This document shows positions 1-27,551 of a stretch of DNA of 60,206 nucleotides, piece by piece. Under the pieces are notes generated by a model, which saw only the letters and a program-made list of their open reading frames with translations, had not been told where the DNA came from and made no database searches. The position numbers and the translations under genes are program-made. The stretch is from Caldilineales bacterium. Its GTDB lineage: Bacteria; Chloroflexota; Anaerolineae; J102. Location of the stretch: positions 1 to 60,206 of the forward strand of contig JAIBAP010000035.1 in the NCBI GenBank assembly GCA_019695115.1, given 5' to 3'. How positions within the stretch are numbered: the stretch's first letter is position 1; each line of letters begins with the position of its first letter.

Positions 1-2
1 TG

Positions 3-113
3 GTGTCTGATGAGGAATTGGCGCAAGTCGATATCCAACGCGCTGATTTTCATGGCGAGTGGAACTATACCATCTTGCCGCGAGTCAAACCAATCGATAC
101 AGTTATTTCATGA
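3..113 (+). mobile_element. 3' end of ISAzo13-like transposase
   Basis: An open frame enters from the left edge and stops with TGA at 111-113, giving 36 residues. The C-terminal stretch (FHGEWNYTILPR) looks like the end of ISAzo13 / 'Rhodopirellula transposase DDE' proteins, where an HG-x-WNYTI motif closes the protein. The catalytic part lies outside the window, so intactness cannot be judged. It converges on the minus-strand giant gene ending at 146. I see no terminal inverted repeat in the 32 bases between them. Family assignment rests on memory of this short motif. Confidence 0.55.
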
Positions 114-145
114 CAGACCCTTAGCATAAAGACCACATCCTCGCG

Positions 146-3100
146 CTAATCTCCTGCTTCATCCAGCCGGCTCTGGGCATCGGAATAACGCCGGTTGGCG
201 CCGGCGATCCGGCTTCGCTTATCGTCGGCGGCGCTGGTTTCCATAGCCTGCGCCTGCTTCAGGCCGTCTGCCCTGGTCTGATCAGCTTTCTGCGCTCCTT
301 GCACCCGATCGCGCTCCGCCGTGGAATCGGCGTTGGCCTTTTGCGTGCGGGCATCCGCCTTCTCGCGGTCGGCCTGCGCTTGCGCTGCTGCCACATCGGC
401 CGCCGCTTTCGCCTGTGTATCGGCCAGATTCTGGGTGGCGGCTTCTAATTTGGCGTGGGCATCCTGCAAGGCCGCTGCTTTGAGCTGCACAGCCTGTTCT
501 TCAGCCGCAGCCTTCTGGGCGTGAGCAAGCGTCAGTTCGGCGTGCGCCTGGTCTAACACCGTCTCGATATTCAGGCCGCCATCCATGTCGATCGGGAACA
601 GCGTGACCGGCGGCTCCTGCCCGTCGAGCCGGCCAGCGTGCAGGTAACGGCGCTTGCTCTCCACCGTCACCAGGCTGCGCGCCCAGGTGGGATCGGGGCC
701 GGGCGTATGCTCCCAACCCTGCGCCGCTGGCGGCGCGGCGCAGTTCCAGGCGCCAAAGCGAACGATGCGTCCTTGAAAGGCAGCAAAGACCTGCCGGGCA
801 TCGTCGCGCTGCAGCAAAGCGCCCTCGATCATCTCATGGGTTTGGGCGGCGTTGGGCGCGCCCAGCGCATGACCTTCAAAAACCCGTACCCCATCGGGCA
901 GGGATATCTTTGCTTCGACCACCTTTTCGCCCTCGATGAACGTGGAAACAACGCCATGCCTGTCCAGCATCCAGGTCACACGCTGCTGTTCATCGATGCG
1001 CAGCCGGCGGTCTGATACGATCTGATGTTCTCCTGTCACGACCTGTCCGTCCCAGCGCAGGTGCAGGGTTGGAATCCCGGATTGACCGTCTGCCGGGTCT
1101 GGTTCAATCAGGCAGGCGATTCGATCTTCGTCCTCGAACGTCGCCAGTTCATAAAGGCAGATGGCCGTTTGGGGATCGGACTCGACTCTCTGCCAAACGA
1201 GATCTGCTGAAACCGTAAAACCGCGGCGCAGGTCGAGGCGGATCGGCTCGAAGGTCAGAACGTCGTCCGCGGCGGGCGGCTGCGCGTCTTGGTCCGCGGT
1301 TGGCGGATCTGAGTTCTTTGCCGCCCCAAAGGAGAGCAGCCTGGCGGGCGATCCATCTGTGGCATCGGTCCATTGCACGCCGGTGAATCCACTTACCGCC
1401 ACCATCGCCACATGCTGGCCCCAGTGAGGATGCTTGGGGTCGTGGTACAGGTCGATGTAGCGGCCGGGTGTATCGAGGACCGGCGCCTCTATGGTTCGCC
1501 GCACAGACGCGACCCAATAGAGGAAGGCCGCTTCCTTCCCTGAACCGTTTTTATCCGCCAGCCGGGAAACAGTAAGGCCACGCGCGGGTCTGGGTGCGGG
1601 GTACAAGGTCGCGACCGCTGCTCCCAATACATTCTCGATTCTGTCGCCGGGCACCACCCCATCTTCTGCATACTGGGCTCCGATGGCATTCTTGATTTTG
1701 TCGCCGGGCAGCATCCGCACCACCTCGTCTTGCGCGTCCAGCCAGAGCAGTGAGCCGTCGGGGGCGACGGCGACGGCGATAGGGAAGGGCGAGGCCACGT
1801 GCGGCAGCAGAACCTGGAATCTCTCCGGCTTATCCTCCTTGACATCGCTCCAAAACAATTCCCAGCCATTGGTCCAGTACAGGATTTGTTCATCTGCATC
1901 CAGGGCAATGTCCCGGTAGTTGGGACGACCAACAGGCCCTCCCGAAGGGCCAAACAGCACTTGCTGGTCATCGGGCCAGTCCTTCTCTGGTGGTATCCAT
2001 CCCCGGCCAATGGCTCCGTCTGCGGTTATCCAGTATTCGCCAAACCAGACCTGGCCCTCATGGTTGGCTCTGGCATGCTTTCCCGAAAAATCAATGGTTA
2101 TCGCTTCTGCCGAACTTTGGTAGAACTTGCTCCCCGGCCCCAGAACCAAATTGGTCGCCACGCCGTTGAGCACATCAACCCGTCTGGTGAGTGACTCCAG
2201 GCTACCGAACCACGCCCCGCTGCCGCGGACAAACCCCAACTGCTTGATTCCCTGGATGTGAATGTCGCGGCGGGCCTGCTCGCGGGCCAGCGCCAATTTT
2301 CGCTGCGCCTGCTTGTGAGCCATGACCTTCTGGGCCGTTGCTTGCTGGTGGGCAGCCAGCAACTTGTGGGCGTTTTCCGCCTCCACCTGCTGCTGCATGC
2401 GTTTGACCAGCACGCTATCGGCCGGGGCTGCGGGCAGATCGGCGCTGACGACGACGGCCTCGGGCGGCGCCTGCCAGGCATCGAAGCCCTGCGCAAAGAG
2501 ATCCAGGGCTGGCGCCTCGGCCGGGGTTGTGGTGGGATAGCGGTCGTCGCGGATTTGTTCGAGTGTGCGGGCGCTGTGCCATACCCGCACCTGGGCGATG
2601 GAACCCCGGAAACTGCGGCCCAGCACCCACGAATCGACACGCCCCAAATCGCCTTTCGATAATTTCGCCTGCCCTACCGGGCGACCGTTCAGGTACCATT
2701 GCAGGATTTCGGTCTCGCTGTCCCAAGTTTGAGCCAGATGATACCAGCGATCCGGTCGCAACAATTCGCCGCCAAAGCGCAATTCGTCGCCGGCGCCCCG
2801 CAGTTCGCTCTGCGTGCGCTCGATGGTCAGACCGTACCCCTCGCCCGAAGAGAGAATGCCGGCATAACGCTCGACGATCACGTTGGATAATGATAACCCG
2901 ACCGGACTTCCGTCTGGCTGTCCGCTTATATACCTGAGATAGGCGGGGTCGATCCGGTCTGATACCCTGTACCCCTTAGGAAACCAGACGCTCACATCTG
3001 CGGGCAGGCTGGTTCCCGGAGCGAACACGCGCAACTCTGGTTGGTAACCAAGTATGCCATCTGGCCCTGCCGGCGCGGCAGCAAAAGCCGCCAACTTGGG

Positions 3101-5044
3101 CGTCCAGGACAGGGCGCCGAGATCACCGCGGCTGCCAGTGACTATTGCGATTCGTCCCTGGTACGATCCTGCAAAATACCCTTCAAACAGGAAGAGCGCT
3201 CCTCCCTCTGGCACGTGGACCGTCCGAAAATCCGGGACTTCGTTCGTGCTACCCCAAAACTGATAAGACGCCCGCACTTCGATATCGGGCTGCTCACGCG
3301 CGGTGTACACCAATTCCTCGCCCACAAGCGGCCCGGCGCGACGGGTCTTGATCAGCCGGGCATCCGCCGGAAAATCGGCACTATCTCCCTGCAAGGTGGA
3401 GCGCACCATCTGGGCCACACGATGGCCGGCAACAGCGATATGCTCGTGGAATCCGCTTCCCCATTCCCGTTGTTCCCGGATCATCTCGAATCCCGGCGGG
3501 ATCCACACAGAACGTTCGGCGCTGCTCCGCACTGCCCTGTCAACGGGAATGACCTGCCCGTGGTGAGAAAGTGACAGAACCCCGTCGGCGCCGTGCGGTG
3601 TAGCCACAAAAATCGCCGCTTGCGGCTTCCAGGTCAGGCCGCTCAGATCAAACACGCCATCCGCAAGGATCTCGTAGTCAGCAATCGCTTCTACCTGTGC
3701 GATAGGCTTTCTGAACAGGAACAGCGCCCGTTGTTTGGGAACATCGACGACGGCGATATCCGGGACATCCTGCAACCAGCTCTGACCTGGGCCCATGAAC
3801 GTCTCCCAGCGCCCATCGGCCAGGCGATAGATGCCCTGTCCTTCCCGCGTTTTGGGCTGGTCGGGCGGACGCTGCACACGCTGGATTCCTTCAGCCATTC
3901 TGCTCGTGTCCTTGCCTTGCTGAGTTGCGGCCGTGCGCTTGACGATGTAGCTGGCGCTGCCTGGACAGGCTTGCAGCCCGCTCCCAATCCTGTCGGGAAT
4001 CGTTTCGTCCCTGCCCGGAACCAGGCAAAAGTCAGGGGGGACCCAGAAATGCCAGTTGATCGCATCAGCCGGGAGGGGGTCGCCAACCGCAAAGAATCGT
4101 ATTTGTGGTTCGCCAGAAGAGTCCGATTTGGGGCCAATCCCGATGACGCCGGCCGCGCCGGCAACGGCGACGTAAATGGCCGACCCGACGGGCATGGGCA
4201 GCGATGGTTGGCCCAGATGCTTGCCCGCCATGATGGTTTCTTTGCCTTCATACCCCGCTTTCTCGAACAAGAAGAGGATGTTGTTCTCCGGGATGGCCGC
4301 CGGTTGCCCTGCTTGAACGTTGAACCCCCACTCCACGGGCAGACTGCTGGTCGAGTTCAGGACAGCTCGCGCCTCCACGGAACCGTCTGCAGACTGGATG
4401 AATACGGTACGAACGGGGGACGCGCAAGTCCAGTTCTCAATGGTGATTGCACTGGAACCTGCAACCGCGCTCGTGCGCAGCTGCGTCACTTCCAGGGCCA
4501 CACCTGGCGGAATCCAGGCCGATCCGATCTGCGCGAGGCCTGGCTTCGTATCCGTAGCCTGCTCTCCTGTGTTCTTCTCCTCCAGCCGCTGCCAGAAATC
4601 CGGCAGGACCAGCACCTCGGCCTTGCCCTGGTAGCCCGGCTGCTCGAACAGAACCACATGGTTCTGGCGGCGATGACTGCGATCCAGCACCACGGCCGAG
4701 CCGATCTGCTGTTGACCCTCCGGCGCCTGCGGCAAGTCCTGGCGGATGGCGAGCGATTCGCCTTGAAAATCCGGCTCGCTAAAGAAGACGGCCTCCATCG
4801 CCTCGGGCAGACTGGCTGATCCGAACTGGGGCAGGTAATCCCCGGCGATGCTCCTGTACAAGCCTTCTTTCAGACGCACGGGCTTGCCGCCATACCCTGG
4901 CTGGGGATAGAGCCGGACGGCCCCATCCATCGGCGCCGGGCAGACCCAGGCTTCGATGGTAAAGCCATTTGACAGATCGGGCAGCTTGCCGCTCAGATCG
5001 ATTTCATGCTCGCTGCGCAAACGTAGGGCCAGGTTGTTACTCAT
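146..5044 (-). CDS. 1632-aa LamG / beta-gamma-crystallin-like / coiled-coil protein
   Basis: Unrecognised giant protein with readable architecture. Residues 1-36 look like the first strands of a LamG/concanavalin domain (LRL...GFTIEAWV). Residues about 40-700 carry at least four and perhaps six repeats of the beta/gamma-crystallin type (aromatic-x4-aromatic-x-G, such as LFEQPGYQGK), most followed by an I/V-G-S-A element. The LamG fold seems to resume at about 725-835 (WYHLAQTWD, WYLNGRPVG, VRVWHSARTLEQI). A short coiled coil follows at about 875-935, then a region with propeller-like strands (ILYWTNGWELFW, IAVAVAPDGSLLWLD) and a second LamG-like domain at about 1310-1490. An Ala/Gln/Lys-rich coiled coil closes the protein. 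There is no signal peptide or membrane segment. ATG at 5044 is preceded by AGAGG. It is the last gene of the minus-strand cassette. Function unknown; adhesion or a toxin-like structural role is conceivable but unproven. Confidence 0.7.
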   Translation of the reverse strand: MSNNLALRLRSEHEIDLSGKLPDLSNGFTIEAWVCPAPMDGAVRLYPQPGYGGKPVRLKEGLYRSIAGDYLPQFGSASLPEAMEAVFFSEPDFQGESLAIRQDLPQAPEGQQQIGSAVVLDRSHRRQNHVVLFEQPGYQGKAEVLVLPDFWQRLEEKNTGEQATDTKPGLAQIGSAWIPPGVALEVTQLRTSAVAGSSAITIENWTCASPVRTVFIQSADGSVEARAVLNSTSSLPVEWGFNVQAGQPAAIPENNILFLFEKAGYEGKETIMAGKHLGQPSLPMPVGSAIYVAVAGAAGVIGIGPKSDSSGEPQIRFFAVGDPLPADAINWHFWVPPDFCLVPGRDETIPDRIGSGLQACPGSASYIVKRTAATQQGKDTSRMAEGIQRVQRPPDQPKTREGQGIYRLADGRWETFMGPGQSWLQDVPDIAVVDVPKQRALFLFRKPIAQVEAIADYEILADGVFDLSGLTWKPQAAIFVATPHGADGVLSLSHHGQVIPVDRAVRSSAERSVWIPPGFEMIREQREWGSGFHEHIAVAGHRVAQMVRSTLQGDSADFPADARLIKTRRAGPLVGEELVYTAREQPDIEVRASYQFWGSTNEVPDFRTVHVPEGGALFLFEGYFAGSYQGRIAIVTGSRGDLGALSWTPKLAAFAAAPAGPDGILGYQPELRVFAPGTSLPADVSVWFPKGYRVSDRIDPAYLRYISGQPDGSPVGLSLSNVIVERYAGILSSGEGYGLTIERTQSELRGAGDELRFGGELLRPDRWYHLAQTWDSETEILQWYLNGRPVGQAKLSKGDLGRVDSWVLGRSFRGSIAQVRVWHSARTLEQIRDDRYPTTTPAEAPALDLFAQGFDAWQAPPEAVVVSADLPAAPADSVLVKRMQQQVEAENAHKLLAAHQQATAQKVMAHKQAQRKLALAREQARRDIHIQGIKQLGFVRGSGAWFGSLESLTRRVDVLNGVATNLVLGPGSKFYQSSAEAITIDFSGKHARANHEGQVWFGEYWITADGAIGRGWIPPEKDWPDDQQVLFGPSGGPVGRPNYRDIALDADEQILYWTNGWELFWSDVKEDKPERFQVLLPHVASPFPIAVAVAPDGSLLWLDAQDEVVRMLPGDKIKNAIGAQYAEDGVVPGDRIENVLGAAVATLYPAPRPARGLTVSRLADKNGSGKEAAFLYWVASVRRTIEAPVLDTPGRYIDLYHDPKHPHWGQHVAMVAVSGFTGVQWTDATDGSPARLLSFGAAKNSDPPTADQDAQPPAADDVLTFEPIRLDLRRGFTVSADLVWQRVESDPQTAICLYELATFEDEDRIACLIEPDPADGQSGIPTLHLRWDGQVVTGEHQIVSDRRLRIDEQQRVTWMLDRHGVVSTFIEGEKVVEAKISLPDGVRVFEGHALGAPNAAQTHEMIEGALLQRDDARQVFAAFQGRIVRFGAWNCAAPPAAQGWEHTPGPDPTWARSLVTVESKRRYLHAGRLDGQEPPVTLFPIDMDGGLNIETVLDQAHAELTLAHAQKAAAEEQAVQLKAAALQDAHAKLEAATQNLADTQAKAAADVAAAQAQADREKADARTQKANADSTAERDRVQGAQKADQTRADGLKQAQAMETSAADDKRSRIAGANRRYSDAQSRLDEAGD

Positions 5045-5106
5045 GATTGCCTCTGATTTTCTGTGGATCCAAACTGATCAAGTGTTAGCAAGCGCGTCGT
5101 CTGAAT

Positions 5107-8100
5107 TCAAAAAGGACTGGGTACCCAGGAAGTTGCCGCATGCCAGCCGCTGCTGAGGGTGTCTTCAACCTTTTCTGCCGCGCGGCTGAACAACTCCTCG
5201 ATCTTGCGTTCAACTTCCTCGATATCGGCCTCGATGGCCCGCACCGCCGCTTCCGCCTCCTGAGCCAGCTGGTTGACCAGGGCGATGGCTTGATCCAGGC
5301 GGGCGGAAACCCAGCGGCGGGCTTCGTCCAACTTTCCCGCCACCCATTGCGCGGCCTCCGCGGCCACCTGAATGGCATACTGCGCCGCCTCGCTGACAAG
5401 GACGGCAACATCGGCAACGATGGCTTTGACGCTGTCAGCCGCATCGGCGGCAAATTGAAGCGCTTTGTTGCTGAAGTCGCTGACTTTGTCGAGCAGAGGC
5501 GCAGCCGCATCCAACGCCGCTTGCGCGACATGGCTTGCCAGAGTCTCTGCCTCGCCAGCCAGGTTTTCGGCAGCTTGCCCGATTTCGCCCGCCGCCTTGT
5601 CCATCGTGTCCGCTACATCGCTCACGATCTGTTTGGCTTCACTGGCAGCAGCAGACGCCACCTCAGCGACCTCCTTTGCGGCCGCGACGGCCACCTGCGC
5701 CACTTCCTGGGCGCCTTCTGCGACGAACTTCCCAATCGGGGCCAGGTATTCCGCGAAGATGTTCTCGGCTTCAGCGACGACATGCTCCCACACTTTCCTG
5801 GCCAGCTCTACCAGGGTGCTGAACCGCTCCTCCAGCACCAGTTCCGGCAGGTGCAAGGCAGCGCCCTGATACTCGAAACTGCCGTCGATGGTCAGTTTGA
5901 ATTCCTCGCTGTCAACCATCAAGGACACGTGCGCATCCAGATCGGTATCGAGATGGAACTGCGTCGCGGCCACGTGCGGAATGATCGGCCCGATGTCGCC
6001 GTGCAGATGCATGCCCAGATCGCCATGCGCCTCCAGCTTCCCTTCCTTGTGCCACCAGTGGCACTCTAATTCGGCCGTTACTTCTTTGCCGGCGCTGATC
6101 TTGAAGTCGAAGTCGAAGCCCTCGTCGGTGATGTCGGCGTGAATATCGGTTTGCAGGAAGCCGAAAAGCTGCGCATGCAGGTCGGCGTGGAGGAAAGGCG
6201 AACTGCGCGTGCTCAGGTGCAGCACCGGGCCGCCCGGTTCGAGGAACCAGTCCCCTGCGTCCTGGGCAGCAGTCGGCTGCTTCTGCTGACCGGCGGCCAG
6301 CGCGGCCACCTTGCTCTTCACCTGTTGGTTGAAGTCTTCGGCTGTCGTGGGCGCCTTGCGGATGCCCTGGCCATCCCCCCAGATCTTCAAGATACGGCCA
6401 ATCTCGATCTTCTCGGCTTCCAAATGACCTGAAAAGCCGGGGATGCCCTGCGTCGAAATATCGAGCACGGCAAAAGCATCCCAGTCGAAGATATGCAGCC
6501 CGCCGCGAATACCGATACCGGGCATGGCCGTGGCGCCATCTGGCAAATTGACGATGCTATCGGCCCAGTGCACGCGCACCGCTTTGAACTCGACTTTGGA
6601 AAGGATGGCTTCGAGATGCCCCAGGGCGCTTTCGGCGGCTTCGATGGCAGTGGATGCGCCTTTGGCGGCCTGCCCTGCGACTTCACTCGCAGCCTTGACA
6701 TCGCTCCCCACCTCACCTCCGGCCAGGTCGCCCACCGCGTCTGCGGCGGCTGCGGCGGCCTCAGCGCCTGCTGCCGCCAGTTTGGCGACGGCGTCTGCCT
6801 GGTGCAGCCGGTATTGCACCCCGGTGACGGCCTCCAGCAGGACAGGGATGCTCAGCTCCTCTGTGCCGAATTCGACGTAAAGGGGCTGGACGATTTCCCC
6901 CTCGACCTCCAGGACAATGGCTGCATCGCCATAGACCAGATCCTTGTCATCCTTGTAAATGGCAAAGGAACCGCTCAGCCCCAGGTCCAGACCGGGCGGC
7001 TCGAACTGGAGACCCAGTTCGAGCGACAAAGGCTTGTCGTGGTTGATCACGAGTTGTACGCCAGGCAAGAGATAAATGGGCGTGAGCGGCACAGGCAGCG
7101 CCAGCTCGGTCATTTGCAGATGACCGGTGAGCGCCTCCTCCGCCAGGGCTATCCAGCCGGTCATCTGCAGGCGTTGCCCGAAAAAGTGGATATCCAGGCC
7201 GCCCTGAATGTCGAATTCCGGCCCGGCCTCCGGGATCTCCAGGTTGTCCTTGATGCGCAGCAGCGGGGAAGTGAGCGCCAGGCTGTTGCCGGCCCCAGCG
7301 TCCAGCTTGAGGCTGCCCGGTATCGCCACCTGCAGGGCGATCACATCGCCGATGGTCACCTGGGCATCGAGCTCATCCACAGCGATCACGCGCCGCACGA
7401 TGTCGTGCGGGCCGAACTTCACCCGTGCGCCCACGGAAACGCCCCGCCCCACGGTCATCGTCCCCGCGCCGAAGGGCGTGCTGGGCGCGTCGCCATCCTG
7501 CCGGGCATAGCTGGGTTGCATGGCGCTGGCCGCAAACGCCGGCGGCTGGTAGGCGCTGCTGCTGACCGTCGAGAACAGGAAGTGCGTGAGCTCGATATGC
7601 TCCAGCACTTCCTCAACGGCCTTCAGGAACGCGCTGACTGGCGCAGGCAGAAACGTCAGATCCTGCGCATCCGCATGCGTCAATTCGTCGTCGCTGCCCG
7701 CAAAGGCAATGCCGGCCACCAGGCCCGCGTTCTCGCCGCCGCGCACGGCGACAAAGGCCTTGGCCTCGCGATACGTGGAGAGGGCGGTGAAGAGCAGGGC
7801 GCTCTCTTGATCGTTCTCCTGCCAGCTAAAGCCCAGCTGCTTGAAGGTCAGGAATTCTTCGATCTTTTCAACGATTTCGCCAAAATCACTGCCGAGCAGG
7901 CCTTTGAGATCGTCAACAAGATGCTCCTGCCCCGCCAGTTTCAGGACATCGTGGATGCCCAGGGTGCTGTCCTCATCGTCGCCCAGCCAGGAGACTTCGA
8001 CCACCCGGTTGGTTACGCCGGCTTGGGGGCTGCCCCCTGCTGGCGCGGACTGGCTGCCGCTGGACTGACTGTACTCCGCCAGGAGCACGCCCTCGCCCAG

Positions 8101-10293
8101 CGGCCGCGACCAGGCGACATCGAAAGCATTGCCCGGACGGGCATAGCTCATGGAGAGGCTGGCAACCTGAAAGACGGCGTCGAGTACCTGCGCGCCCGCG
8201 GTGGGGATGTCCAGACCGAGACCCGTCGCAACGTCGGATAAGCTCAGCGGGTCGCCTTCGGGCGCATCGAAATCAAAGCCGAATGATTGCGCGTCGGCGG
8301 ATAGCAGCGCCTGCGTCTCCAGTTCGTAGGAGCGGGTCTGCCCATTGACCATGACTTCCTTCTCCAGCGTCAAGTTGACGGAGAAGGTGGCGTGGGTCTT
8401 GCCCTGTTGGGGGTCGCGGGCCACGATCATCTGCAGAATGGCTTTGGAGACGCTGCCGCCCAGCACGGGAACATCATCGGCTATCTTCCAGTCGGTGATA
8501 GCTTGCATATCGAGGCGCCGGTCAGCCGTGTCATAGTTCAACGAGATCCGCTCCAGGGAAACGTCTGGGATCTCGGCGGGAACAGCCGCCCCAAAGGCAT
8601 GCACCAGGTGATCGACGAGTGTTGTCAGGGAGATGCCTTCTGGCGGGGCATCGGCAATACCTTCGAATAGCCAACCGTCCGCAGTGCGCTCGGCATCGAC
8701 GGAGAGCGTGACCGGCCCCAACGTCAACAAAGCGGCGATGCTGCCCAGCGCCTTGCCTTGATCCGGCTTGTGGATATCGAGCGTGATCGCGTCCAGGACG
8801 ATTGCTCCGGCGGCGAAAGTCGGAACGAGATCAACCTGGCCATCGAGCTTGATCTGCAGCCTGTTGGTTGCTTCGCCATCCTTTTCTCCCGGCAGCAGGC
8901 GCTGCAGCCTGGCCTGACGCAGCGTGACTGTATCCAGGCCAAAAGGCAGGGGGACAGCAGGCAGGAGATGCTCGATGAATTGACCGAGGTGTACCCCATC
9001 CGGCTCGTCCAATGCGCCTTCGATGAGATCCCACGTTCGCGCATGAACCTGAAAATGCACGTCCGCAATGGCCATGAAGCCGGTCAATTCGACGGTCGGC
9101 GACTCCTGCCCCAGTGGCAGGGGAATGGCGAAGGTGAAATCAACTTCACTCAACTCGAAAGGGCCAACGTGGCACAGATGCTTTTCTGCGGTTGCGTGGC
9201 CGCCAGCGCCAACGGTGAAGAGCATCCATTGACCGGGTGAATAGATGAAAGAGATCAGGGAAAGCGTGTCCGGGAGTTCCAGCGCCAACTCCGCCATGAT
9301 CTGGCTCGCAACTCCAGATCCGATCAAGCTACTCAAAGCCGCCAGGCTCTCGCCCAGCGGAATGAGACGACCCATGCGGGTCGCATAGCGGGGTGTAAAG
9401 TCTTCGATGACGTGGGCTTCCAGGATGATCGGCTCGGCTGTGGGTTCGGCTGATGTCCTGATTTCGCGCAGCCAGTAATGAAATCCCTCATTCGGGTTTT
9501 TCAGATCGTAATGTATCGCCAGCCCCGCCTTATGGCTGCTGCTTTCTCCCGTCCCTTCCAGCGCGGCGGCTTTATCCCACCAACACTCCAGGTCCAGCCA
9601 ACCGTCAGCGACATCGCCGCGGATGGCAACGCGCGCCGGATCGGCAGCCTGATCGGGCAAAGCGGCAGCATGGGCGAAGTCCTGCCACCATTTATCCGGC
9701 AACGCCTGGCTGCCATTGACAAGACCATCGGCGAAAATCTGCAAACCGTCTTGCAGGACGTAACCTGCCAGAGCAACCTCGCGTTTGACCGGTTCATCTG
9801 AGCCAGCCTCCTGTTCATCCGCATCCTTGCTCCGATCCAGTTCAAAAACCGTGCGACTCTCCTCCATGCGGCTCAGCCCGTAGCTGACGACAATGACGCC
9901 GTCGCGTAGGCTCAGCCCCCCTTGCATCATGGGCGCCTCTTTAATTGCGGGAAAACCGGTCGCCAGTTGCCACCCCTTTTCCGGCAAGGGAATGAGCAGC
10001 AACAGGCTTTGCACCTCACCGCCTGTGAGCACGAGTTCGAGGTAGATTTCGCGGCTGTGATGGCCAAACAGGTCGCCAACGCCCTGCATCGCCAGCACCT
10101 CCGCGCCTTTTGGCCCTTTGGGTGGGGGCTGAACGATCTCAGCGTTGGTCACCTCGACAGGTTCCTGCCCCAAAGCTGCGCGCAACGCATGGCGCGCCTC
10201 ACCCAATCGCGCGATGGCCGCGGAGAGCGTAAAGGTTTGCCTGGTCGGGTCGTAGTGAAGCGCCTGCAAAAGCGCATCTGTTGCATAGCTCAT
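5107..10293 (-). CDS. 1728-aa protein of unknown function with beta-rich modules and coiled-coil tail
   Basis: The function is not recognised. The first 250 residues are mixed alpha/beta. A long middle part (about 250-1450) consists of beta-rich modules with amphipathic strands. One module (about 540-610) has the pattern DGWLFEG...TLVDHLVHAFG...ISLNYDT, which I recall from other giant bacterial proteins carrying DUF6603-type regions; that likeness is from memory. Residues about 1490-1700 are very Ala-rich and predicted helical or coiled-coil, ending in SWVPSPF. No signal peptide or membrane span is apparent. ATG at 10293 has AAGGA eleven bases upstream. It lies 62 bp upstream of the 1632-aa gene and 64 bp downstream of the 575-aa gene, on the same strand, so co-transcription is likely. 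Confidence 0.65.
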   Translation of the reverse strand: MSYATDALLQALHYDPTRQTFTLSAAIARLGEARHALRAALGQEPVEVTNAEIVQPPPKGPKGAEVLAMQGVGDLFGHHSREIYLELVLTGGEVQSLLLLIPLPEKGWQLATGFPAIKEAPMMQGGLSLRDGVIVVSYGLSRMEESRTVFELDRSKDADEQEAGSDEPVKREVALAGYVLQDGLQIFADGLVNGSQALPDKWWQDFAHAAALPDQAADPARVAIRGDVADGWLDLECWWDKAAALEGTGESSSHKAGLAIHYDLKNPNEGFHYWLREIRTSAEPTAEPIILEAHVIEDFTPRYATRMGRLIPLGESLAALSSLIGSGVASQIMAELALELPDTLSLISFIYSPGQWMLFTVGAGGHATAEKHLCHVGPFELSEVDFTFAIPLPLGQESPTVELTGFMAIADVHFQVHARTWDLIEGALDEPDGVHLGQFIEHLLPAVPLPFGLDTVTLRQARLQRLLPGEKDGEATNRLQIKLDGQVDLVPTFAAGAIVLDAITLDIHKPDQGKALGSIAALLTLGPVTLSVDAERTADGWLFEGIADAPPEGISLTTLVDHLVHAFGAAVPAEIPDVSLERISLNYDTADRRLDMQAITDWKIADDVPVLGGSVSKAILQMIVARDPQQGKTHATFSVNLTLEKEVMVNGQTRSYELETQALLSADAQSFGFDFDAPEGDPLSLSDVATGLGLDIPTAGAQVLDAVFQVASLSMSYARPGNAFDVAWSRPLGEGVLLAEYSQSSGSQSAPAGGSPQAGVTNRVVEVSWLGDDEDSTLGIHDVLKLAGQEHLVDDLKGLLGSDFGEIVEKIEEFLTFKQLGFSWQENDQESALLFTALSTYREAKAFVAVRGGENAGLVAGIAFAGSDDELTHADAQDLTFLPAPVSAFLKAVEEVLEHIELTHFLFSTVSSSAYQPPAFAASAMQPSYARQDGDAPSTPFGAGTMTVGRGVSVGARVKFGPHDIVRRVIAVDELDAQVTIGDVIALQVAIPGSLKLDAGAGNSLALTSPLLRIKDNLEIPEAGPEFDIQGGLDIHFFGQRLQMTGWIALAEEALTGHLQMTELALPVPLTPIYLLPGVQLVINHDKPLSLELGLQFEPPGLDLGLSGSFAIYKDDKDLVYGDAAIVLEVEGEIVQPLYVEFGTEELSIPVLLEAVTGVQYRLHQADAVAKLAAAGAEAAAAAADAVGDLAGGEVGSDVKAASEVAGQAAKGASTAIEAAESALGHLEAILSKVEFKAVRVHWADSIVNLPDGATAMPGIGIRGGLHIFDWDAFAVLDISTQGIPGFSGHLEAEKIEIGRILKIWGDGQGIRKAPTTAEDFNQQVKSKVAALAAGQQKQPTAAQDAGDWFLEPGGPVLHLSTRSSPFLHADLHAQLFGFLQTDIHADITDEGFDFDFKISAGKEVTAELECHWWHKEGKLEAHGDLGMHLHGDIGPIIPHVAATQFHLDTDLDAHVSLMVDSEEFKLTIDGSFEYQGAALHLPELVLEERFSTLVELARKVWEHVVAEAENIFAEYLAPIGKFVAEGAQEVAQVAVAAAKEVAEVASAAASEAKQIVSDVADTMDKAAGEIGQAAENLAGEAETLASHVAQAALDAAAPLLDKVSDFSNKALQFAADAADSVKAIVADVAVLVSEAAQYAIQVAAEAAQWVAGKLDEARRWVSARLDQAIALVNQLAQEAEAAVRAIEADIEEVERKIEELFSRAAEKVEDTLSSGWHAATSWVPSPF

Positions 10294-10357
10294 TTTTATG
10301 TTTTCCTTGACGCGGTCACGGGCGCCGCTTGCTTGTGAAAGCGGCGGGGAGATGAGA

Positions 10358-12085
10358 TCAGTGATCTAGCCTGATGATTTCAAGATCATCGTCGGTTTCA
10401 ACGTCGTCGCCGCCGAGGTAGGATTCCACGGCCGCTGCCGCTTGCGCTATCGCGGCCGGTTGGGGGAGCGGCGCGGCAGGCATCATGCCGTTCTCCGCGT
10501 GGCTTGGGGCGGGGGCGACATGAATCAGCGTGGCGATGGGGCCTTGCGCCGCGGGCGGCTCTTCGCCGCCGTCGCTATCCCCGGCGATTTCTCTGGCCGT
10601 TTCCTGGAAGGCATACATGGTCTTTTCGGCGAACAAAGATGCCGCATCCCCACCCCGGTCGTTGATTTGCTGCTGCAGATCCTCCTGCTCTTGCTTGGGG
10701 TCGCGTGGCGCGTTGTCCGCCAGCTGCGCACCCGCTTCTTTGACCGCTGCGTTCGTTTCTGCGGTCGTTTTGCCTTTGGAACCCATGAATTTCTGCTTGA
10801 TGAACTGCTTGACTTCCTGCCATCGTGTCACAGGAGGCGCGACGTAAAGGGATTTTCTGGAAGAGCGCTTGACCAGGACGAACCTTTCTTCGTACAGATG
10901 ATAGTTTGTCACCATCATGAGCCGCACGACACGCTCGAAATCTTCCCGCCATACATCATCGATGGTGATCTCTTTGCGGTTGAATAGATTAATCTGCCAG
11001 AGTGCGTTGTAGATCCAACGGTTTTCCGGTTTTCTGGCTTCCTGCCGCAGGCGCTTGAGACCAGGATGATCCTGGGTCCAGCCGAGCGGCAGAATACCCA
11101 ATAACGCCAGCGCATCCACGCCCTGGAGATGCGGTAGCGTCAGGCCCAAGACCGGATGTTTTTTCAGGAGGTCGTTGTCAATTTGGCCTTTGGCGATCTG
11201 CTCATTTGCCGCTCTGACATCAATAATTTCTTTGATGAGGAGAACAAATTTGACGACAAAATGAACAGCGCTCATGGGCAGAGTAATGGCGCCAGCCAGT
11301 CCCGTAGGGGCGGCGGCCACGCTGACCAGGGATTTGGCCAATGCGGCGCTTTTATCGGCGATATCGGCATTGTCACAGCGGATGACCGCCTCCAGCCCTA
11401 CCTGCTCGATGACTGAGCAACTGGTGGCATGTTGACTTTGGCTCTGGATCTTGTTCCATGCCGTCATGATGATGAAGGTCGTATAGCCGGCCGCGGCGCA
11501 CAGATTGAAAATGGGAGCGACAAAGGGGACAATCCCTAACACATCTATGGACGATGACACGGCCGCAATATCGGCTCCGAGAACCTGGGCAAGCTCCGTG
11601 ACGACATTGATAGTTTTCTGAGGAGCGCTGGTAACCAGATCCTTGCCTTCCTTGGCTATATCCTTTGCGACCAGGGCTGCATCCTTGGCCAGCAACAGTC
11701 CAGGGATGGCAATGTGGGTCGCAGCGGTGATGCCCGCAGTCACTTTGCCCATTTCGAGTTCAGCATCTTTCAGGTTGTCATTCATCCATTTCAAGAGCGC
11801 GTCTTTATGATCTTGCGCTGTTTCACCATAATTTGCCCAGATCTTCAGCTGTTGCGATGGCCTGAGCATCTGACCGACCTGTCCTGCCGCCATGACGCCG
11901 CCTGCGGCCGCCGCGCCAGCCGCGCCGCCAAGACGGAGATTCCCCTTTTCCTTTTCTGCGCGTCTGGCGGCGATGCGTTCACCCTGCGCGCGTGCGCTCG
12001 CACGTTCGGCACCAGTCAGTACGACTAGTGGAGCAGGCGCGGCGGATGTGGGACGCGTATCCGTTTTGATTGCTGCTTCTGGCAT
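10358..12085 (-). CDS. 575-aa hypothetical protein with hydrophobic helical core
   Basis: Not recognised. The N-terminal 60 residues are charged and Ala-rich. A Gly/Ala stretch follows at about 55-72, then several hydrophobic helices at roughly 110-150, 180-215 and 255-290 that could be membrane-associated or pore-forming. A central region with WIYNALWQINLFNRKEITID and a charged C-terminal half follow. The last 120 residues are disordered, Pro/Ala-rich and acidic (GGDDVETDDDLEI). There is no cleavable signal. It sits 17 bp downstream of the broken DUF2135-like gene and 64 bp upstream of the 1728-aa gene, the spacing of an operon. Its partnership with the two giants is inferred from order and strand only. 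Confidence 0.6.
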   Translation of the reverse strand: MPEAAIKTDTRPTSAAPAPLVVLTGAERASARAQGERIAARRAEKEKGNLRLGGAAGAAAAGGVMAAGQVGQMLRPSQQLKIWANYGETAQDHKDALLKWMNDNLKDAELEMGKVTAGITAATHIAIPGLLLAKDAALVAKDIAKEGKDLVTSAPQKTINVVTELAQVLGADIAAVSSSIDVLGIVPFVAPIFNLCAAAGYTTFIIMTAWNKIQSQSQHATSCSVIEQVGLEAVIRCDNADIADKSAALAKSLVSVAAAPTGLAGAITLPMSAVHFVVKFVLLIKEIIDVRAANEQIAKGQIDNDLLKKHPVLGLTLPHLQGVDALALLGILPLGWTQDHPGLKRLRQEARKPENRWIYNALWQINLFNRKEITIDDVWREDFERVVRLMMVTNYHLYEERFVLVKRSSRKSLYVAPPVTRWQEVKQFIKQKFMGSKGKTTAETNAAVKEAGAQLADNAPRDPKQEQEDLQQQINDRGGDAASLFAEKTMYAFQETAREIAGDSDGGEEPPAAQGPIATLIHVAPAPSHAENGMMPAAPLPQPAAIAQAAAAVESYLGGDDVETDDDLEIIRLDH

Positions 12086-12102
12086 GTTCAGGGTATCCTG
12101 TT

Positions 12103-12468
12103 CTACTGAATTCGATCTGCTCGGGCGCGTCGAGACAGCACGCGCCGCGGCCAGGGTTTGGCCGGGTAGGTCTCGCCCGGCAGGCGATCGCGCACCCTGT
12201 CGGCGATCAGCACGCGGCCCGCCGGCCAGTCAATTGTCGCCACATCCCACACCTGATCGTTGGTCATCTGCTGTGGCCCAAAATCCAGCTGCCGATTGCC
12301 CATGCGCGGACTGCTGGGGCCGCGGACGTGGTCAGAATATTAATGCAACTTGACGGTATAGACGCCATTGGCCGCCCGTTCCAGGATGATGTTCTCGATC
12401 GTACAGGAGGTCACGCAGTCCACTACGCTGGAGCGGCCGCTGGTTTGAACTGGGGGTAAGGCTGGCAT
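12103..12468 (-). pseudogene. Small DUF2135/YfaP-like beta-sandwich gene with in-frame TAA
   Basis: ATG at 12468-12466 has a very good Shine-Dalgarno (TAGGAGGT, ten bases upstream). The frame reads 42 residues, including ENIILERAANGVYTVKLH, and hits TAA at about 12340-12342. It then continues open in the same frame (YSDHVRGPSSPR...QVWDVATIDWPAG...) to TAG at 12103. Together the two halves resemble a DUF2135-type domain, in which Gly-x-Tyr-x-Val precedes HY and a later V-W-x-V-A-T-I-x-W-P strand. The simplest reading is a sense Tyr codon changed to TAA, making a pseudogene. A 42-aa product, recoding or a sequencing error are alternatives. It is the first gene of the giant-protein cassette. Confidence 0.55.
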
Positions 12469-14637: not shown

Positions 14638-17600
14638 CTACCTCATCACCCACGGCAGATAGAACGACGGCCGCCCGGCGAAACTGAGCGAGGCGGCCGG
14701 GCGCAGGGCGGCGGTGTCGAAACTGGCGTAGATCAATCCCTGTTCACCCTGCGCGGCCACCGCCAGCCGGTCGCCCGCGGCCGAGTAGACGAACGCTCGC
14801 CCATCGGCCCGTTGCCGGGCATTGCCCAGATTGGCGAACCAGTAGCCATCGGCATCGACCAACGCCGCCAGCGGTAGCGACTGGCCTGCCGCGCCCTCGC
14901 CATCGGCATCCTGCAAGGTCAGGTGGAGGATGGCGCCGGCGGCCGGCGTAACGCCATCGACGGCGAAGACCCGGCCGTAGATGGTGTCGGGGGCAGGCGG
15001 GGCGGCCAGCGCCGGGATCGTGCGGAAACTGGCCGGCGGAGCGGCCGGCCCGCCCTCCCCGCCCGATACGATGCGGTAGAAATAGGTCGTATCCGGCTTG
15101 AGACCGGCCACGGTCACGAAGTGCGTGCGGCTGACGATGTCGTAGCCGCGGGCGTCGACGCCGAAGCTGCCCAGGGCAGCGGTCTCGCCATACTCCACAA
15201 AGCCGGTGGCGGGCTGCTCGCTCAGCCAGCTCAGGGTGGCGCTGCCCTCGCGCAGGTTGGCCAGTTGGAGGTTGCTGACGGCGACGGCCTCGGCGGGGAT
15301 GGCGGCGGGCGGCTCGGCGGCTGCGGCGGCCTGGACGGCTTCGTCCGCGTCCGGCGGCGCTTGCGGCGTGATCACCCAGCTACCGTTCACGCGCAGGAAG
15401 TAGCCCTGATGCCGCTCGATGGCGAAATCCCCGAACGGCAAGCCGCAGATGTGGCCGCTCCAGCCGCTATCCAGCCAGCGGTCGATCTCCACGGCCGGCG
15501 CGCCCTGGCTGATGATCTCATCGCACAGGCTGGCGGCGGTGTAGGCGCCAGTGTGGGGGACGCTGATCGCATTCCAGCCGCTGTTCAAGGTCAGCGAGAC
15601 CGGCTGTGTGACCGGCTCGCCCGCCAGATTCCAAACGCTGGCAGTGTTGTTGCGGACGAAATAGCCGCCGCCCAATGCCAGCCCGAAATCGTTGGCCGGC
15701 GCCGCGCAGGCGTGCCCGTCCCAACCGGCCTGATGCCAGCGATCGACCTCGACCAGCGCCCCGCCCTGTTGAGTGGCCTGGGTGCAGAGGCCAGCCGCCG
15801 TCAGGGGGGCGGACGGCGCCAGGGGCAGGGCGATGAAGCTCCAGCCGCGCTTGAGCGTCAGTTGGGCGATGTGGGCGCAATCGTCGGCCGGGCCGAGCAG
15901 CAGGTCGGGAGCCGGCCGGCCGGCGGCGGCATCGATGGCGGCCGGGCAGGCGACGCCATCCCGCCCGGCCCGCACCTCGATCTGCAGACGGTCGCCGGGG
16001 GCCGAATAGCCAAAGTAGCGCACCAAATTGCTGACGCGCGCGTTGCCCAGGTTGACCGACCAGTAGCCATTGGCGTCGGTAAGGGCCGATAGCGCCGCCG
16101 ACCGGCCCGAACTGCCCTGGCCGTTGGCATCCTGCAAGCTGAGGAAGACGAGCGCGCCCGCCGCCGGGCCGCCGCCTGCCTGCAACACACGACCAAAGGC
16201 GGCGTCGGTGGCGGGCAGGGTCAGGGTGGGGCCGGTCTTGAAGCGGAAGAAGGCGCCGCCGTTGTCGGCCTGCGTGGGGCCGGAGCGGACGGCGAAGTAG
16301 TAGGTGGTGTTGGGCGTCAACCCGGTCAGGGTGACGAAATGGGCGTCATCGCGCACACCCTCCCCGCGCACATCGGCGGCCGTGCGGTGGACGTGGTTGG
16401 CGTCAGGGCCGAAGACGATGCTGCCATCGGCGACGACGTCGGTCAGCCACGAGATGGTGGCCGAGGCGTCGGTCAGATGGGTGGTGCGCACATCGGCAAT
16501 TGTGGGCGTGGGTGCAACCACACTCACCTGCACGTGCAGCACCCGGCGCCCGTGTTGCGGGTCGTTGCTCAGCAGAATCAGGTGGGCGGCAAGGTCGGCA
16601 GGCGAGTCGCCGCTTTCGATGGCGACCTGCGCCACGGCCGTCCCGCCCGGATCGACCAGGCCCACATCCGGGGTCGCGCTCAGCCAGTCAACATCGCTGT
16701 ACTCCTGGCAGCGCTCGTTCTCGCCGGGGTAGGCGAAGCAGATGGCCAGCCCGTTCGTCAGCCGCGGGGCATTGAAGCCAAAGCTCAGGCCGGTCTCGGC
16801 GTCGCCCTGGATGCCGACCGTGGCCGAACCACCATAGTTGTTGCTGGAACCGAATACCACATCCTGATACTGGAAGAGGATGTTGCCGTTGGCAAAGAGG
16901 ATGGCCTGCCAGTTGCCGGGCTGAACGCCACTGAACGGCTGCAACTGGTAATACTCGATGATCAGCCGGTCCGCCTCGGCCAGAGTGTAGATGGCGCCTG
17001 GGCCGACGACCAGATCATCCCAGAACGGGGCGATGAAGGTGAGCAGGCCATCGAGGGTCGGGCCAGGGATGGGGGAGTTGTCGAATGTCACCATCCTGTC
17101 CTGGAAATAGAGGATGCCGTTGGACGAAACCGCCAGCCGGCGATAGTCCTGACCGTAGAACGGAAACGCGAACGGCAACTCCATCGGCCAGAAATAGGCG
17201 TCGTCCTTGCCAGTTAGCTGCGTGATCTCGGCCCCGCCTCCCCCGGCCGGCGGCGCAATCTCGACCCACTGATAATGCGGCCCGCCCTGGATGCGGTTGT
17301 CGCGCCAGGTATAGCCGAACAAGTCCGGCCCGCCCTGCGGTGGGATGGAGGGAGCGGAGGCCGGCTCCTTCTCGAGCAGGCGATAACTGAGGGTCTCGGC
17401 CCCGGTGTTGGTGAGCGTCACCGGTAGGGTCAGGCGCTCGCCCACCGCCATCGTCGCCTCGACGCTTGCCGGCGCAAGGGTCAGGCAAGGTTGCAGCAGT
17501 CGCAGGTCGAGGGCGAGGGGCGTGGTCGTCTGGCCGGTGATGGTGAGGCCGCCGGCAGAGGCGAACTCGTGTAGCGGATGACCGGCTACGACCGCATAGG

Positions 17601-22134: not shown

Positions 22135-22283
22135 GGCCTCCTCCTCGAGCGCCACAACACAAGACTGGAAGAAAAGTTACCCGAAGTATACTGCAAAGTC
22201 CGGCCGGCGTCAATATCCTTTGCGGCCCGACCGATGGTATGATCTGCCTGCTCATCCACTCCCCTTTTCCCCGCCTTCCTGCC

Positions 22284-26646: not shown

Positions 26647-26910
26647 ATGGACGCGGATCGATCTGATTTCGACCAGCCGATGGCAATGACCGAGCACATG
26701 CGACGGTTGATCGCCGGCGCGGTGGCAGAGGTCGATCGGCGGCAAATCGAGATGTCGCGGCACCTGACGCCGGCGCAACGATTCCGGCAAGCGCTGTCCA
26801 TGATCGAGCTAGCGGAGGGAGTGGGCGCCTATCGCCTTCGCCAATGCCGCCCCGATCTCAGTGAAGCCGAGGCGCTACGCATCATCAGGAGTCGGAACCT
26901 CGATGCCTGA
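26647..26910 (+). CDS. Small hypothetical protein preceding a nucleotidyltransferase
   Basis: Up to 87 residues, helical and charged (RRLIAGAVAEVDRRQIEM, TPAQRFRQALSMIELAE, DLSEAEALRIIRSR). The first ATG (26647) lies in an ACGCGGATGGACGCGGATC repeat, so the true start may be the in-frame ATG at 26680 or 26686. Its stop overlaps the next gene's ATG by 8 bp, implying a coupled pair. I infer a toxin-antitoxin-like partner of the nucleotidyltransferase from the arrangement alone. Confidence 0.6.
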   Translation: MDADRSDFDQPMAMTEHMRRLIAGAVAEVDRRQIEMSRHLTPAQRFRQALSMIELAEGVGAYRLRQCRPDLSEAEALRIIRSRNLDA

Positions 26911-27514
26911 TGATGGCATGCCATTTGCTGAATTCGTTCAGCTCGTCTTGGATGCCCTCGATGCCGCTGATGTAAAGTATCTGATCGGCGGCGCTGTGGC
27001 TGTTTGGGCCTGGGGCGAGCCTCGCACCACCCGCGATCTCGATCTCGTCATCGAGTTGCCGTTCGAGTCGATGCTGGCGCTGTCGCAGGAATTGAAGAGG
27101 CGCGACATGCTGGTTCCGGTCGAGACGATGATCGATCTGATGATCGAAGCCCGCGCCGACCTGCCCATCTCGGCCATCCACGTGTTCTCCGGTTACAAAG
27201 CCGAGTTCTTCCTGCTCAAGCCGGCGGACGAGTTCCGGCAGGCCTGTTTGCAGCGTCGCCGCCTGGTCGATCTCGGCCCACCGCTGGGCCAGGTCTACGT
27301 CCATTCGCCCGAAGATCTGATCCTCAACAAGCTGCGCTACTTCCAGATCAGCCAACAGCCCAAGCATGTACGAGACATCGCCAGCGTCATCCTGAATCTC
27401 GACCAAGAACTCGATGCTGCCTACATCGATCACTGGATCCAGTCACTTGGCCTGGTCGAACCGTGGCGGGAAGTCCAGGGCCGCGTGGCCCAGCTACGCA
27501 ACAGGGCCTTTTGA
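26903..27514 (+). CDS. AbiEii/DUF6036-like nucleotidyltransferase
   Basis: A 203-residue protein with the nucleotidyltransferase signature GGAVAVWAWG followed by RTTRDLDLVI (metal-binding D-x-D) near residues 25-45. HSPEDLILNKLRYF comes later, as in AbiEii-type and DUF6036 proteins. These enzymes often act as toxins or as partners of small regulatory proteins by transferring nucleotides to RNA or protein. It overlaps the preceding small gene by 8 bp. Its 3' end (from 27443) is included in the downstream tandem duplication. Biochemical activity is inferred. Confidence 0.7.
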   Translation: MPDDGMPFAEFVQLVLDALDAADVKYLIGGAVAVWAWGEPRTTRDLDLVIELPFESMLALSQELKRRDMLVPVETMIDLMIEARADLPISAIHVFSGYKAEFFLLKPADEFRQACLQRRRLVDLGPPLGQVYVHSPEDLILNKLRYFQISQQPKHVRDIASVILNLDQELDAAYIDHWIQSLGLVEPWREVQGRVAQLRNRAF

Positions 27515-27551
27515 CCCCTCGCCACGATCACCCTATCCATCGGAGGAACCC

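What the first reader, a model, noticed from the sequence alone, without database searches (positions are those of the whole stretch)
146..12468. Four-gene cassette of signal-less giant proteins with coiled-coil tails
Two proteins of 1728 and 1632 residues, a 575-residue helical protein and a small DUF2135-like gene are read in one direction with 17-64 bp gaps. Neither giant has a signal peptide or membrane span, and both end in Ala-rich coiled coils. This is unlike Sec-exported surface proteins and suggests a cytoplasmic assembly or a cargo for a non-Sec export machine. No such machine lies inside the window.
Basis: partly seen in the sequence, partly recalled or inferred. Interest (0 to 1): 0.7.

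Follow-up and report, generated by a model that had tools for sequence, protein, structure and literature searches.

The report
Foreign giant-protein cassette, undescribed family
Three large genes with no evident export signal sit together as what looks like a horizontally acquired block, and the biggest belongs to an undescribed family of giant proteins found on plasmids of six bacterial phyla, several beside enzyme genes, which makes it a plausible but untested delivery or toxin-like complex.

Summary
Three large same-strand genes are real: P3 (575 aa), P2 (1728 aa) and P1 (1632 aa), with gaps of 64 and 62 bp. The claimed fourth gene is cut by an in-frame TAA and matches no Pfam family. P2's tail is not a heptad coiled coil: its hydrophobic period is 3.64 and its strongest repeat 11 residues. 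P1's tail has no hydrophobic periodicity.

The block looks foreign: GC3 is 0.64-0.73 against 0.85±0.03 in 14 window genes, with an ISAzo13-like transposase end beside it. P1 and P3 are orphans in what I searched. P2 founds an unnamed family without a Pfam model, recovered on plasmids of eight other bacteria in six phyla; 2 of 400 Chloroflexota, this one included, have it. Neighbours of the eight relatives include Exo_endo_phos-type proteins (3 loci), a YWTD propeller plus subtilisin (1) and endolysin-type genes (3).

Best guess (0.35): a cytoplasmically assembled, toxin-like or delivery complex released by lysis, with P1 for recognition, P2 as carrier and P3 membrane-active. A lipid-surface role is a main rival. 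No contractile sheath gene was found in this draft genome; a Tc test was inconclusive. Family and neighbours are shown; function is inferred.

The parts
146..5044 (-). P1, 1632 aa: Laminin_G_3 match (aa 754-831), beta/gamma-crystallin match (aa 86-145), LYW motifs of YWTD-propeller type (aa 1046-1225, not proven), Ala-rich tail (aa ~1499-1632)
5107..10293 (-). P2, 1728 aa: member of the giant family studied here; beta-rich by sequence pattern, core aa ~933-1525, amphipathic helical tail aa ~1489-1715 with 11-residue autocorrelation; no Pfam/NCBIfam family above cut-off
10358..12085 (-). P3, 575 aa: predicted mostly helical at low confidence, hydrophobic windows aa 115-133, 182-200 and 266-284; no relative found
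12103..12468 (-). broken small frame (ATG at 12468, in-frame TAA 12340-12342, ORFs of 42 and 66 aa); not an intact fourth gene; no Pfam match
3..113 (+). end of a reading frame whose first 26 residues match the end of the ISAzo13 transposase profile (E=0.00085, below cut-off), in a 121-124 bp repeat shared with three other contigs; downstream border of the visible cassette

Best explanation
Shown: P3-P2-P1 is a compositionally foreign block, and P2 belongs to an unnamed family of giant proteins, several with a helical tail, found on plasmids of six phyla; several members sit beside genes for apparently signal-less enzymes (Exo_endo_phos, subtilisin) or a YWTD propeller. Inferred: it is a multi-protein complex assembled in the cytoplasm and released by cell lysis. 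P2 would be the large carrier/scaffold whose amphipathic tail docks on a membrane, a lipid surface or a partner helix. P1 (LamG, crystallin-like, possibly propeller) would be the recognition part. The companion gene would be the active component: enzymes in some relatives, and here probably P3, through its hydrophobic helices. It would work like a toxin-like or antagonistic particle, without being a member of the Tc or eCIS families.
For: Family: P2 vs the Paenibacillus protein E=4e-34 (this includes the low-complexity tail; the core alone, aa 1229-1514, gives 2.8e-25 with filtering). Profile A1 (P2, Paenibacillus, Mycetohabitans, Azospirillum) also hits five members not used to build it: Priestia 1.3e-22, Hymenobacter 3e-19, Calothrix 5.8e-17, Herpetosiphon 1.8e-14, Streptantibioticus 3.7e-12, in a file of 33 proteins. 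Partners: Exo_endo_phos gene 29 bp upstream in Herpetosiphon, 18 bp upstream in Azospirillum, and a relative of the Herpetosiphon one (E=2e-44) 63 bp upstream in Calothrix; propeller and then S8 peptidase at 24 and 22 bp in Paenibacillus. Foreign: GC3 of P1/P2/P3 0.70/0.73/0.64 vs 0.847 sd 0.029 in 14 window genes. Endolysin-type genes near 3 of 8 relatives: Hymenobacter GH108 at 129 bp (PHROG endolysin 4e-29), Paenibacillus PG_binding_1/M74-like at 134 bp, divergent, Mycetohabitans GH108 (by annotation) about 2.3 kb away on the opposite strand. Precedent for lysis release of a large toxin complex: Yersinia entomophaga Tc (PMC10847048, passages seen).
Against: No Exo_endo_phos or S8 enzyme lies in this cassette; P3 resembles nothing, and its hydrophobic windows (up to 2.01) are not far above those of P1 and P2 (1.85, 1.73). 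An Exo_endo_phos-type or propeller gene lies within 70 bp in 4 of 8 relatives only; the Calothrix one has changed catalytic motifs and no Pfam match, and the other four have different neighbours: a P-loop/AAA-like gene in Mycetohabitans, the endolysin in Hymenobacter, a JHBP-like frame in Streptantibioticus, an 87-residue protein in Priestia. No chance control for neighbours was run. No endolysin was seen beside the window cassette, but I did not scan the window exhaustively and the contig ends at P1. P1 and P3 have no relatives, so the exact trio is seen once. P1-propeller similarity is not significant (7 of 100 shuffles score as high; hhalign probability 0.4%). No structure: both AlphaFold runs failed (pLDDT 38 and 40).
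Confidence: 0.35

Rival explanations
1. An intracellular lipid-handling or lipid-surface system: P2 is a giant beta-sheet protein that holds or coats lipid (droplet, granule or membrane) through its long amphipathic tail, with P3 in the membrane. It would work like apolipoproteins or bridge-type lipid carriers without being one.
For: P2 tail period 3.64 with lag-11 autocorrelation 0.82 (shuffle 95% 0.02); sub-threshold Pfam Apolipoprotein matches on the P2 and Paenibacillus tails (E=0.0017 and 0.0054; 18.5 and 16.9 bits against a cut-off of 90); the frame upstream of the Streptantibioticus relative matches JHBP, a hormone/lipid-binding family, weakly (E=0.0023, 17.6 bits against 29.2); Exo_endo_phos proteins include lipid phosphatases (recalled).
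Against: All these matches are below curated cut-offs; the P2 tail also matches phage tape-measure helices (PHROG 1.9e-5), so helical composition alone may explain them; no recognised lipid gene in the cassette; the propeller, subtilisin and endolysin neighbours are not explained; no PDB match for profile A3 or for the JHBP-like frame.
Confidence: 0.2
2. A structural, adhesive or matrix assembly (filament, sheath or storage particle) with no toxic role: P1 and P2 join through their helical tails and form large cytoplasmic or cell-surface fibres.
For: Long Ala-rich tails in P1 and P2; the P1 tail has weak 29/58-residue autocorrelation (0.57 and 0.68; shuffle 95% 0.49) like the clear 29-residue repeats of the Herpetosiphon and Hymenobacter relatives; LamG and crystallin domains are common in adhesive proteins (recalled).
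Against: Enzyme partners in some relatives look intact: Exo_endo_phos with NIEN or NIQN, GDFN and SDH motifs in Herpetosiphon and Azospirillum, an S8 peptidase whose triad looks complete by eye (motifs recalled). The rare distribution (2 of 400 Chloroflexota, 1 of 9 in the Herpetosiphon family) fits an accessory function better than housekeeping structure.
Confidence: 0.2
3. A recently acquired, decaying foreign block with no present role in this host.
For: Foreign GC3, a transposase-like end at its border, a broken frame at its head; no P2 in the two other genomes of the same genus that were searched, one of them 79% complete.
Against: The three large genes (11.8 kb) are without any stop or frameshift, which argues for recent selection or very recent arrival.
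Confidence: 0.15

Closest known systems
Tc (ABC) toxin complexes
   Same: Multi-gene, very large proteins; Tc of Yersinia entomophaga is released by lysis (PMC10847048, passages seen)
   Different: No Tc Pfam family in P1-P3; PF18276 not found in this genome, but no control rang, so inconclusive
Extracellular contractile injection systems and their cargo
   Same: Non-Sec delivery would suit proteins without a signal
   Different: No sheath (PF04984) in the draft genome, with working controls; no eCIS or tail gene named in the plasmid neighbourhoods that I listed (the Streptantibioticus records carry no annotation)
DUF6603 (PF20248) giant proteins
   Same: Recalled as large, repetitive beta-rich proteins
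   Different: No match of P2 by hmmscan or in the genome search (no control rang); no match in the six relatives scanned; the Calothrix and Streptantibioticus giants were not scanned
Apolipoprotein/perilipin-type and hendecad helices
   Same: 11-residue periodicity and one continuous hydrophobic face in the P2 tail
   Different: Pfam Apolipoprotein score 18.5 against a cut-off of 90; the rest of P2 is unrelated
LDL-receptor-type YWTD propellers
   Same: The Paenibacillus neighbour Pa_B matches LRP4/LRP2/LRP6 chains (best E=1.9e-14)
   Different: P1 aa 850-1300 matches no propeller chain; only LYW motifs, with a pattern chosen after reading both proteins

Membership tests
P2 family (defined here) | Similarity over the conserved core (A1/A2) | tested here: met
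   Paenibacillus found by tblastn from P2 at 1e-19; five further members, first found by genome profile or tblastn searches, also hit the A1 profile without being in it
P2 family (defined here) | Shared N-terminal module (W-x-x-A-x-x-F-P stretch) | tested here: inconclusive
   Profile of four relatives hits P2 at E=0.033, best shuffled decoy 0.35; alignment looks convincing
P2 family (defined here) | Helical tail straight after the core | tested here: met
   Met for P2 and Paenibacillus (11-residue pattern), Herpetosiphon and Hymenobacter (29-residue repeats), weakly Priestia; Mycetohabitans has a different repeat; Calothrix, Azospirillum and Streptantibioticus tails were not tested
Tc toxin complex | TcA/TcB/TcC domains in the cassette or genome | tested here: inconclusive
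   No Tc family in P1-P3; PF18276 absent from own genome but controls silent
eCIS / contractile injection | Sheath gene in the genome | tested here: not met
   PF04984: 0 of 1 own genome; 3 of 14 controls rang
DUF6603 | PF20248 match | tested here: not met
   hmmscan of P2 at E<=1: none; whole genome: none, but no control rang
Apolipoprotein A/E | Pfam PF01442 above cut-off | tested here: not met
   18.5 bits vs 90
Heptad coiled coil | Hydrophobic period 3.5 in the P2 tail | tested here: not met
   Power 0.4 at 102.9 degrees, 36.6 at 99.0; residue autocorrelation at lag 7 is 0.36, above shuffles but below lag 11
Known anti-phage defence (PADLOC) | A significant model match outside helical tails | tested here: not met
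   P1 and P3 none; P2 tail only, best E 0.0051; Herpetosiphon giant tail only, 0.00092
DUF2135 (fourth gene) | Pfam match of the small frame | tested here: not met
   Pieces and X-read frame: 0 families at E<=1

The most novel reading that the evidence does not exclude
P2 defines an undescribed, horizontally moving class of giant cytoplasmic carrier proteins, shared by at least six phyla. Each has a beta-rich body, many have an amphipathic helical tail, and they are paired with interchangeable active partners (Exo_endo_phos, subtilisin, propeller, or a helical membrane protein) and released by lysis. That would be a delivery system unrelated to Tc toxins or contractile injection systems.
Probability: 0.25. 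Interest if true: 0.85.

Novelty: new variant of a known kind. Interest (0 to 1): 0.58.

Why it matters
A giant-protein family spread over six phyla, carried on plasmids and in several cases beside enzymes, has no Pfam model above cut-off in the seven members scanned (P2 and six relatives), P2 has no NCBIfam model, and a search for six member names found no paper. If the partner enzymes are its payload, this is an unrecognised class of bacterial antagonism or delivery system. If the tails coat lipids, it is an unrecognised class of bacterial lipid protein. Either way the family alignment and the question of which gene lies next to the giant make it directly testable.

Tried and rejected
AlphaFold2 without alignment on the P2 core (627 aa) and P3: mean pLDDT 38 and 40, so no fold search was run.

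Genome-contig scan with P2: one candidate, L009, a 26-residue match with no plus-strand ORF of 130 aa or more over it; treated as chance and dropped. Viral-contig scans with P2, the Herpetosiphon giant and P3: no relative. Phage records: nothing for P2 or the Herpetosiphon giant.

Dropped before counting family members: Streptomyces NA02950 (H4, helical part only) and three Deinococcus records (repeat region only). The two Streptantibioticus records are one strain and counted once.

P1 against the Paenibacillus propeller gene: not significant by hhalign or by shuffles, 7 of 100. The LYW motif count (3 against a shuffle mean of 0.078, 0 of 500) used a pattern written after reading both proteins and proves little.

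Tape-measure (PHROG), ZorA and PbeC (PADLOC) and apolipoprotein (Pfam) matches fall on the P2 tail and were read as helical composition. Paper searches gave no description of the family: DUF6603 0 papers, six member names 0 papers, TULIP with bridge-like lipid transfer 0 papers; the listings were seen as listings only and looked off topic except PMC10847048; the Herpetosiphon genome paper was seen in passages. (a stretch of the Mycetohabitans locus) was read but not used.
Full report
WHAT IS THERE. The window is contig C35 of a 135-contig draft genome of 5.99 Mb. On its minus strand lie, in order of reading, P3 (10358-12085, 575 aa), P2 (5107-10293, 1728 aa) and P1 (146-5044, 1632 aa), separated by 64 and 62 bp. 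None holds a stop, and codon-position GC is that of coding DNA. The fourth gene of the finding is one frame from an ATG at 12468 that meets an in-frame TAA at 12340-12342; its pieces, and the frame read with X at the stop, match no Pfam family.

THE BLOCK LOOKS FOREIGN. GC at third codon positions is 0.70, 0.73 and 0.64 in P1, P2 and P3, against a mean of 0.847 (sd 0.029, range 0.80-0.88) in 14 other genes of the window (these are 14 that I chose because they have Pfam matches above cut-off, not all genes). The contig begins 145 bp beyond P1, in a 121-124 bp repeat shared with three other contigs. The 36-residue frame at positions 3-110 matches, over its first 26 residues, the end of the ISAzo13 transposase profile (E=0.00085, profile 283-308 of 308, below the curated cut-off). 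So the downstream neighbour of P1 is unknown.

DOMAINS. P1 has Laminin_G_3 at aa 754-831 (3e-14) and a beta/gamma-crystallin repeat at aa 86-145 (1.4e-6; 5.8e-8 when cut out). Its first 45 residues read like the opening strands of a LamG domain, so the crystallin-like region may be inserted inside LamG; this is by eye only. P2 and P3 have no family above cut-off in Pfam or NCBIfam. P3 is predicted helical with low confidence and has hydrophobic windows at KD 2.01, 1.95 and 1.60; the best of P1 and P2 are 1.85 and 1.73.

THE TAILS. Spectra of hydrophobicity show the P2 tail (227 aa) with one coherent peak at 99.0 degrees (3.636 residues per turn; power 36.6, highest of 300 shuffles 9.7) and nothing at the heptad angle (0.4); the Paenibacillus tail is alike (99.5 degrees, 35.4 against 10.7). 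The P1 tail has no peak. Residue autocorrelation is highest at lags 11, 29, 7, 18 for P2 and 11, 58, 51, 18 for Paenibacillus, but at 29 and 58 for Herpetosiphon, Hymenobacter and Deinococcus; Priestia is weak (lag 29, -0.27 against a shuffle limit of -0.39). Lag 7 in P2 (0.36) exceeds the shuffle limit (0.02), so some heptad-spaced similarity is there, below lag 11 (0.82). The P1 tail slightly exceeds shuffles at 58 and 29. The Mycetohabitans tail differs: period 3.2 over its repeat and lags 28 and 14, heptad multiples, in the stretch before it. Thus 'coiled coil' in the heptad sense does not fit P2; a straight amphipathic helix, a hendecad bundle or helical-hairpin repeats do.

RELATIVES OF P2. 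As a single protein P2 finds nothing else in 40 other relatives or in 399 other Chloroflexota genomes, and one plasmid among 72,556, from Paenibacillus amylolyticus (tblastn 1e-19; E=4e-34 in direct comparison with the tail included; 2.8e-25 for the core with filtering). Chaining gave Mycetohabitans and Azospirillum (4e-7 and 3e-4; Azospirillum later matches Calothrix at 1e-17). Profile A1 gave Herpetosiphon (E=9e-11; 2 of 400 Chloroflexota including own). Its protein gave Calothrix, Hymenobacter and Streptantibioticus, and Mycetohabitans gave Priestia. Three further searches brought no new record. That is eight plasmid loci plus the window, in six phyla. The A1 profile hits the five members not used to build it at E 1.3e-22 to 3.7e-12, in a file of 33 proteins. 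The refined profile A2 again rings in 2 of 400 and in 1 of 9 genomes of the Herpetosiphon family, so the gene is accessory. That all relatives are on plasmids is partly a bias: the plasmid collection was the only annotated bacterial one open to a protein search. The six relatives' giants that I scanned have no Pfam family above cut-off (Paenibacillus, Mycetohabitans and Azospirillum, Herpetosiphon, Hymenobacter, Priestia); the Mycetohabitans Fibrinogen_BP match (6.5e-9) is on its tail and below cut-off. The Calothrix and Streptantibioticus giants were not scanned.

NEIGHBOURS OF THE RELATIVES. Herpetosiphon: Exo_endo_phos protein 29 bp upstream (2e-8, above cut-off). Azospirillum: the same kind 18 bp upstream (annotated so; Pfam 2.4e-4, below cut-off). 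Calothrix: a relative of the Herpetosiphon partner 63 bp upstream (E=2e-44) whose GDFN and SDH motifs have changed to GTFN and SGY, and before it a second protein with GDFN and SDH motifs, placed by motif only; Pfam finds neither. Motif names are recalled. Paenibacillus: 24 bp downstream a 482-residue protein with helical ends and a YWTD propeller (LRP4, 1.9e-14), then 22 bp on an S8 peptidase. Hymenobacter: GH108/endolysin 129 bp downstream. Paenibacillus and Mycetohabitans also have peptidoglycan-hydrolase-type genes at 134 bp (divergent; PG_binding_1 2.1e-5 above cut-off, M74 below) and about 2.3 kb (GH108 by annotation). Mycetohabitans has a P-loop/AAA-like gene 29 bp upstream and a DUF3238 gene before it. 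Priestia has an 87-residue protein 86 bp upstream of its giant and none of the enzymes above next to it; an L,D-transpeptidase lies about 4.1 kb upstream. The Streptantibioticus records carry no annotation; the frame before its giant matches the JHBP family weakly. So an Exo_endo_phos-type or propeller gene lies within 70 bp in 4 of 8 loci. I ran no control for how often such neighbours occur by chance.

P1 AND P3. P1 against 301 Chloroflexota genomes: own plus four short matches (E 7e-6 to 9e-4), two on LamG and two at aa 175-288 and 325-428, these two with a stop inside. P3 against 251: own only. Neither matches any plasmid. The P1 region after its first helix carries three LYW/QW motifs of YWTD type, but similarity to the Paenibacillus propeller gene is not significant. 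The order giant, then helix-propeller-helix gene would be the same in both loci if the motif reading is right.

DELIVERY MACHINES. No sheath family in this draft genome although controls rang. The Tc marker test is inconclusive because no control rang. From PADLOC only tail-region matches.

MECHANISM. Giants without an evident signal, a rare and plasmid-borne distribution, partner genes that in several loci are enzymes or recognition modules, and endolysin-type genes near three of eight relatives lead me to a cytoplasmic complex freed by lysis, as shown for the Yersinia entomophaga Tc toxin (PMC10847048, passages seen). Herpetosiphon aurantiacus, one carrier, is a predator of bacteria (PMC3368417, passages seen). 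The steps from neighbours to payload and from hydrophobic helices to membrane action are inference. A lipid-surface role is a strong rival because of the tail and the weak JHBP neighbour.

NOVELTY. The family is undescribed as far as these libraries and paper searches show. Because function is unproven and large multi-protein complexes without signals are a known kind, I rate it a new variant and put the bolder reading in the novel case.

Noticed in passing
L020:9095-10978 (Deinococcus taeanensis plasmid): A 627-residue protein made largely of 29-residue helical repeats, similar to the repeats in the tails of the Herpetosiphon and Hymenobacter giants; the two giants gave no Pfam match.
   Followed up: partly
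L007:16486-17931 (Paenibacillus amylolyticus plasmid): A bacterial LDL-receptor-type YWTD propeller (best LRP4, 1.9e-14) flanked by long helices, directly after the P2 relative.
   Followed up: yes
L018:8833-9996 (Streptantibioticus cattleyicolor pSCAT): Frame just before the P2 relative with a weak match to the JHBP family (E=0.0023, below cut-off; no PDB match); could be a bacterial TULIP-fold protein.
   Followed up: partly
L016:5937-7937 (Calothrix plasmid): Two neighbouring proteins that look Exo_endo_phos-like, one (by motif only) with kept and one with changed catalytic motifs, as if an enzyme and a pseudo-enzyme pair.
   Followed up: partly
L017:14845-16854 (Hymenobacter plasmid): SLOG (LSDAT_prok) plus SLATT protein of nucleotide-signalling defence type, two genes after the giant.
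   Followed up: no
window 14638-22155 (-): Another giant (2505 aa) with carboxypeptidase-regulatory, Kelch, fn3 and purple-acid-phosphatase N-terminal domains; host-like GC3 (0.84), not part of the cassette.
   Followed up: no
window 1-124: Repeat at the contig end shared with contigs C104, C117 and C89, with an ISAzo13-like transposase end; the assembly breaks here, so the gene after P1 is unseen.
   Followed up: partly
window 26861-28166: AbiEii-like (below cut-off) and Uma2 family reading frames that overlap one another.
   Followed up: no
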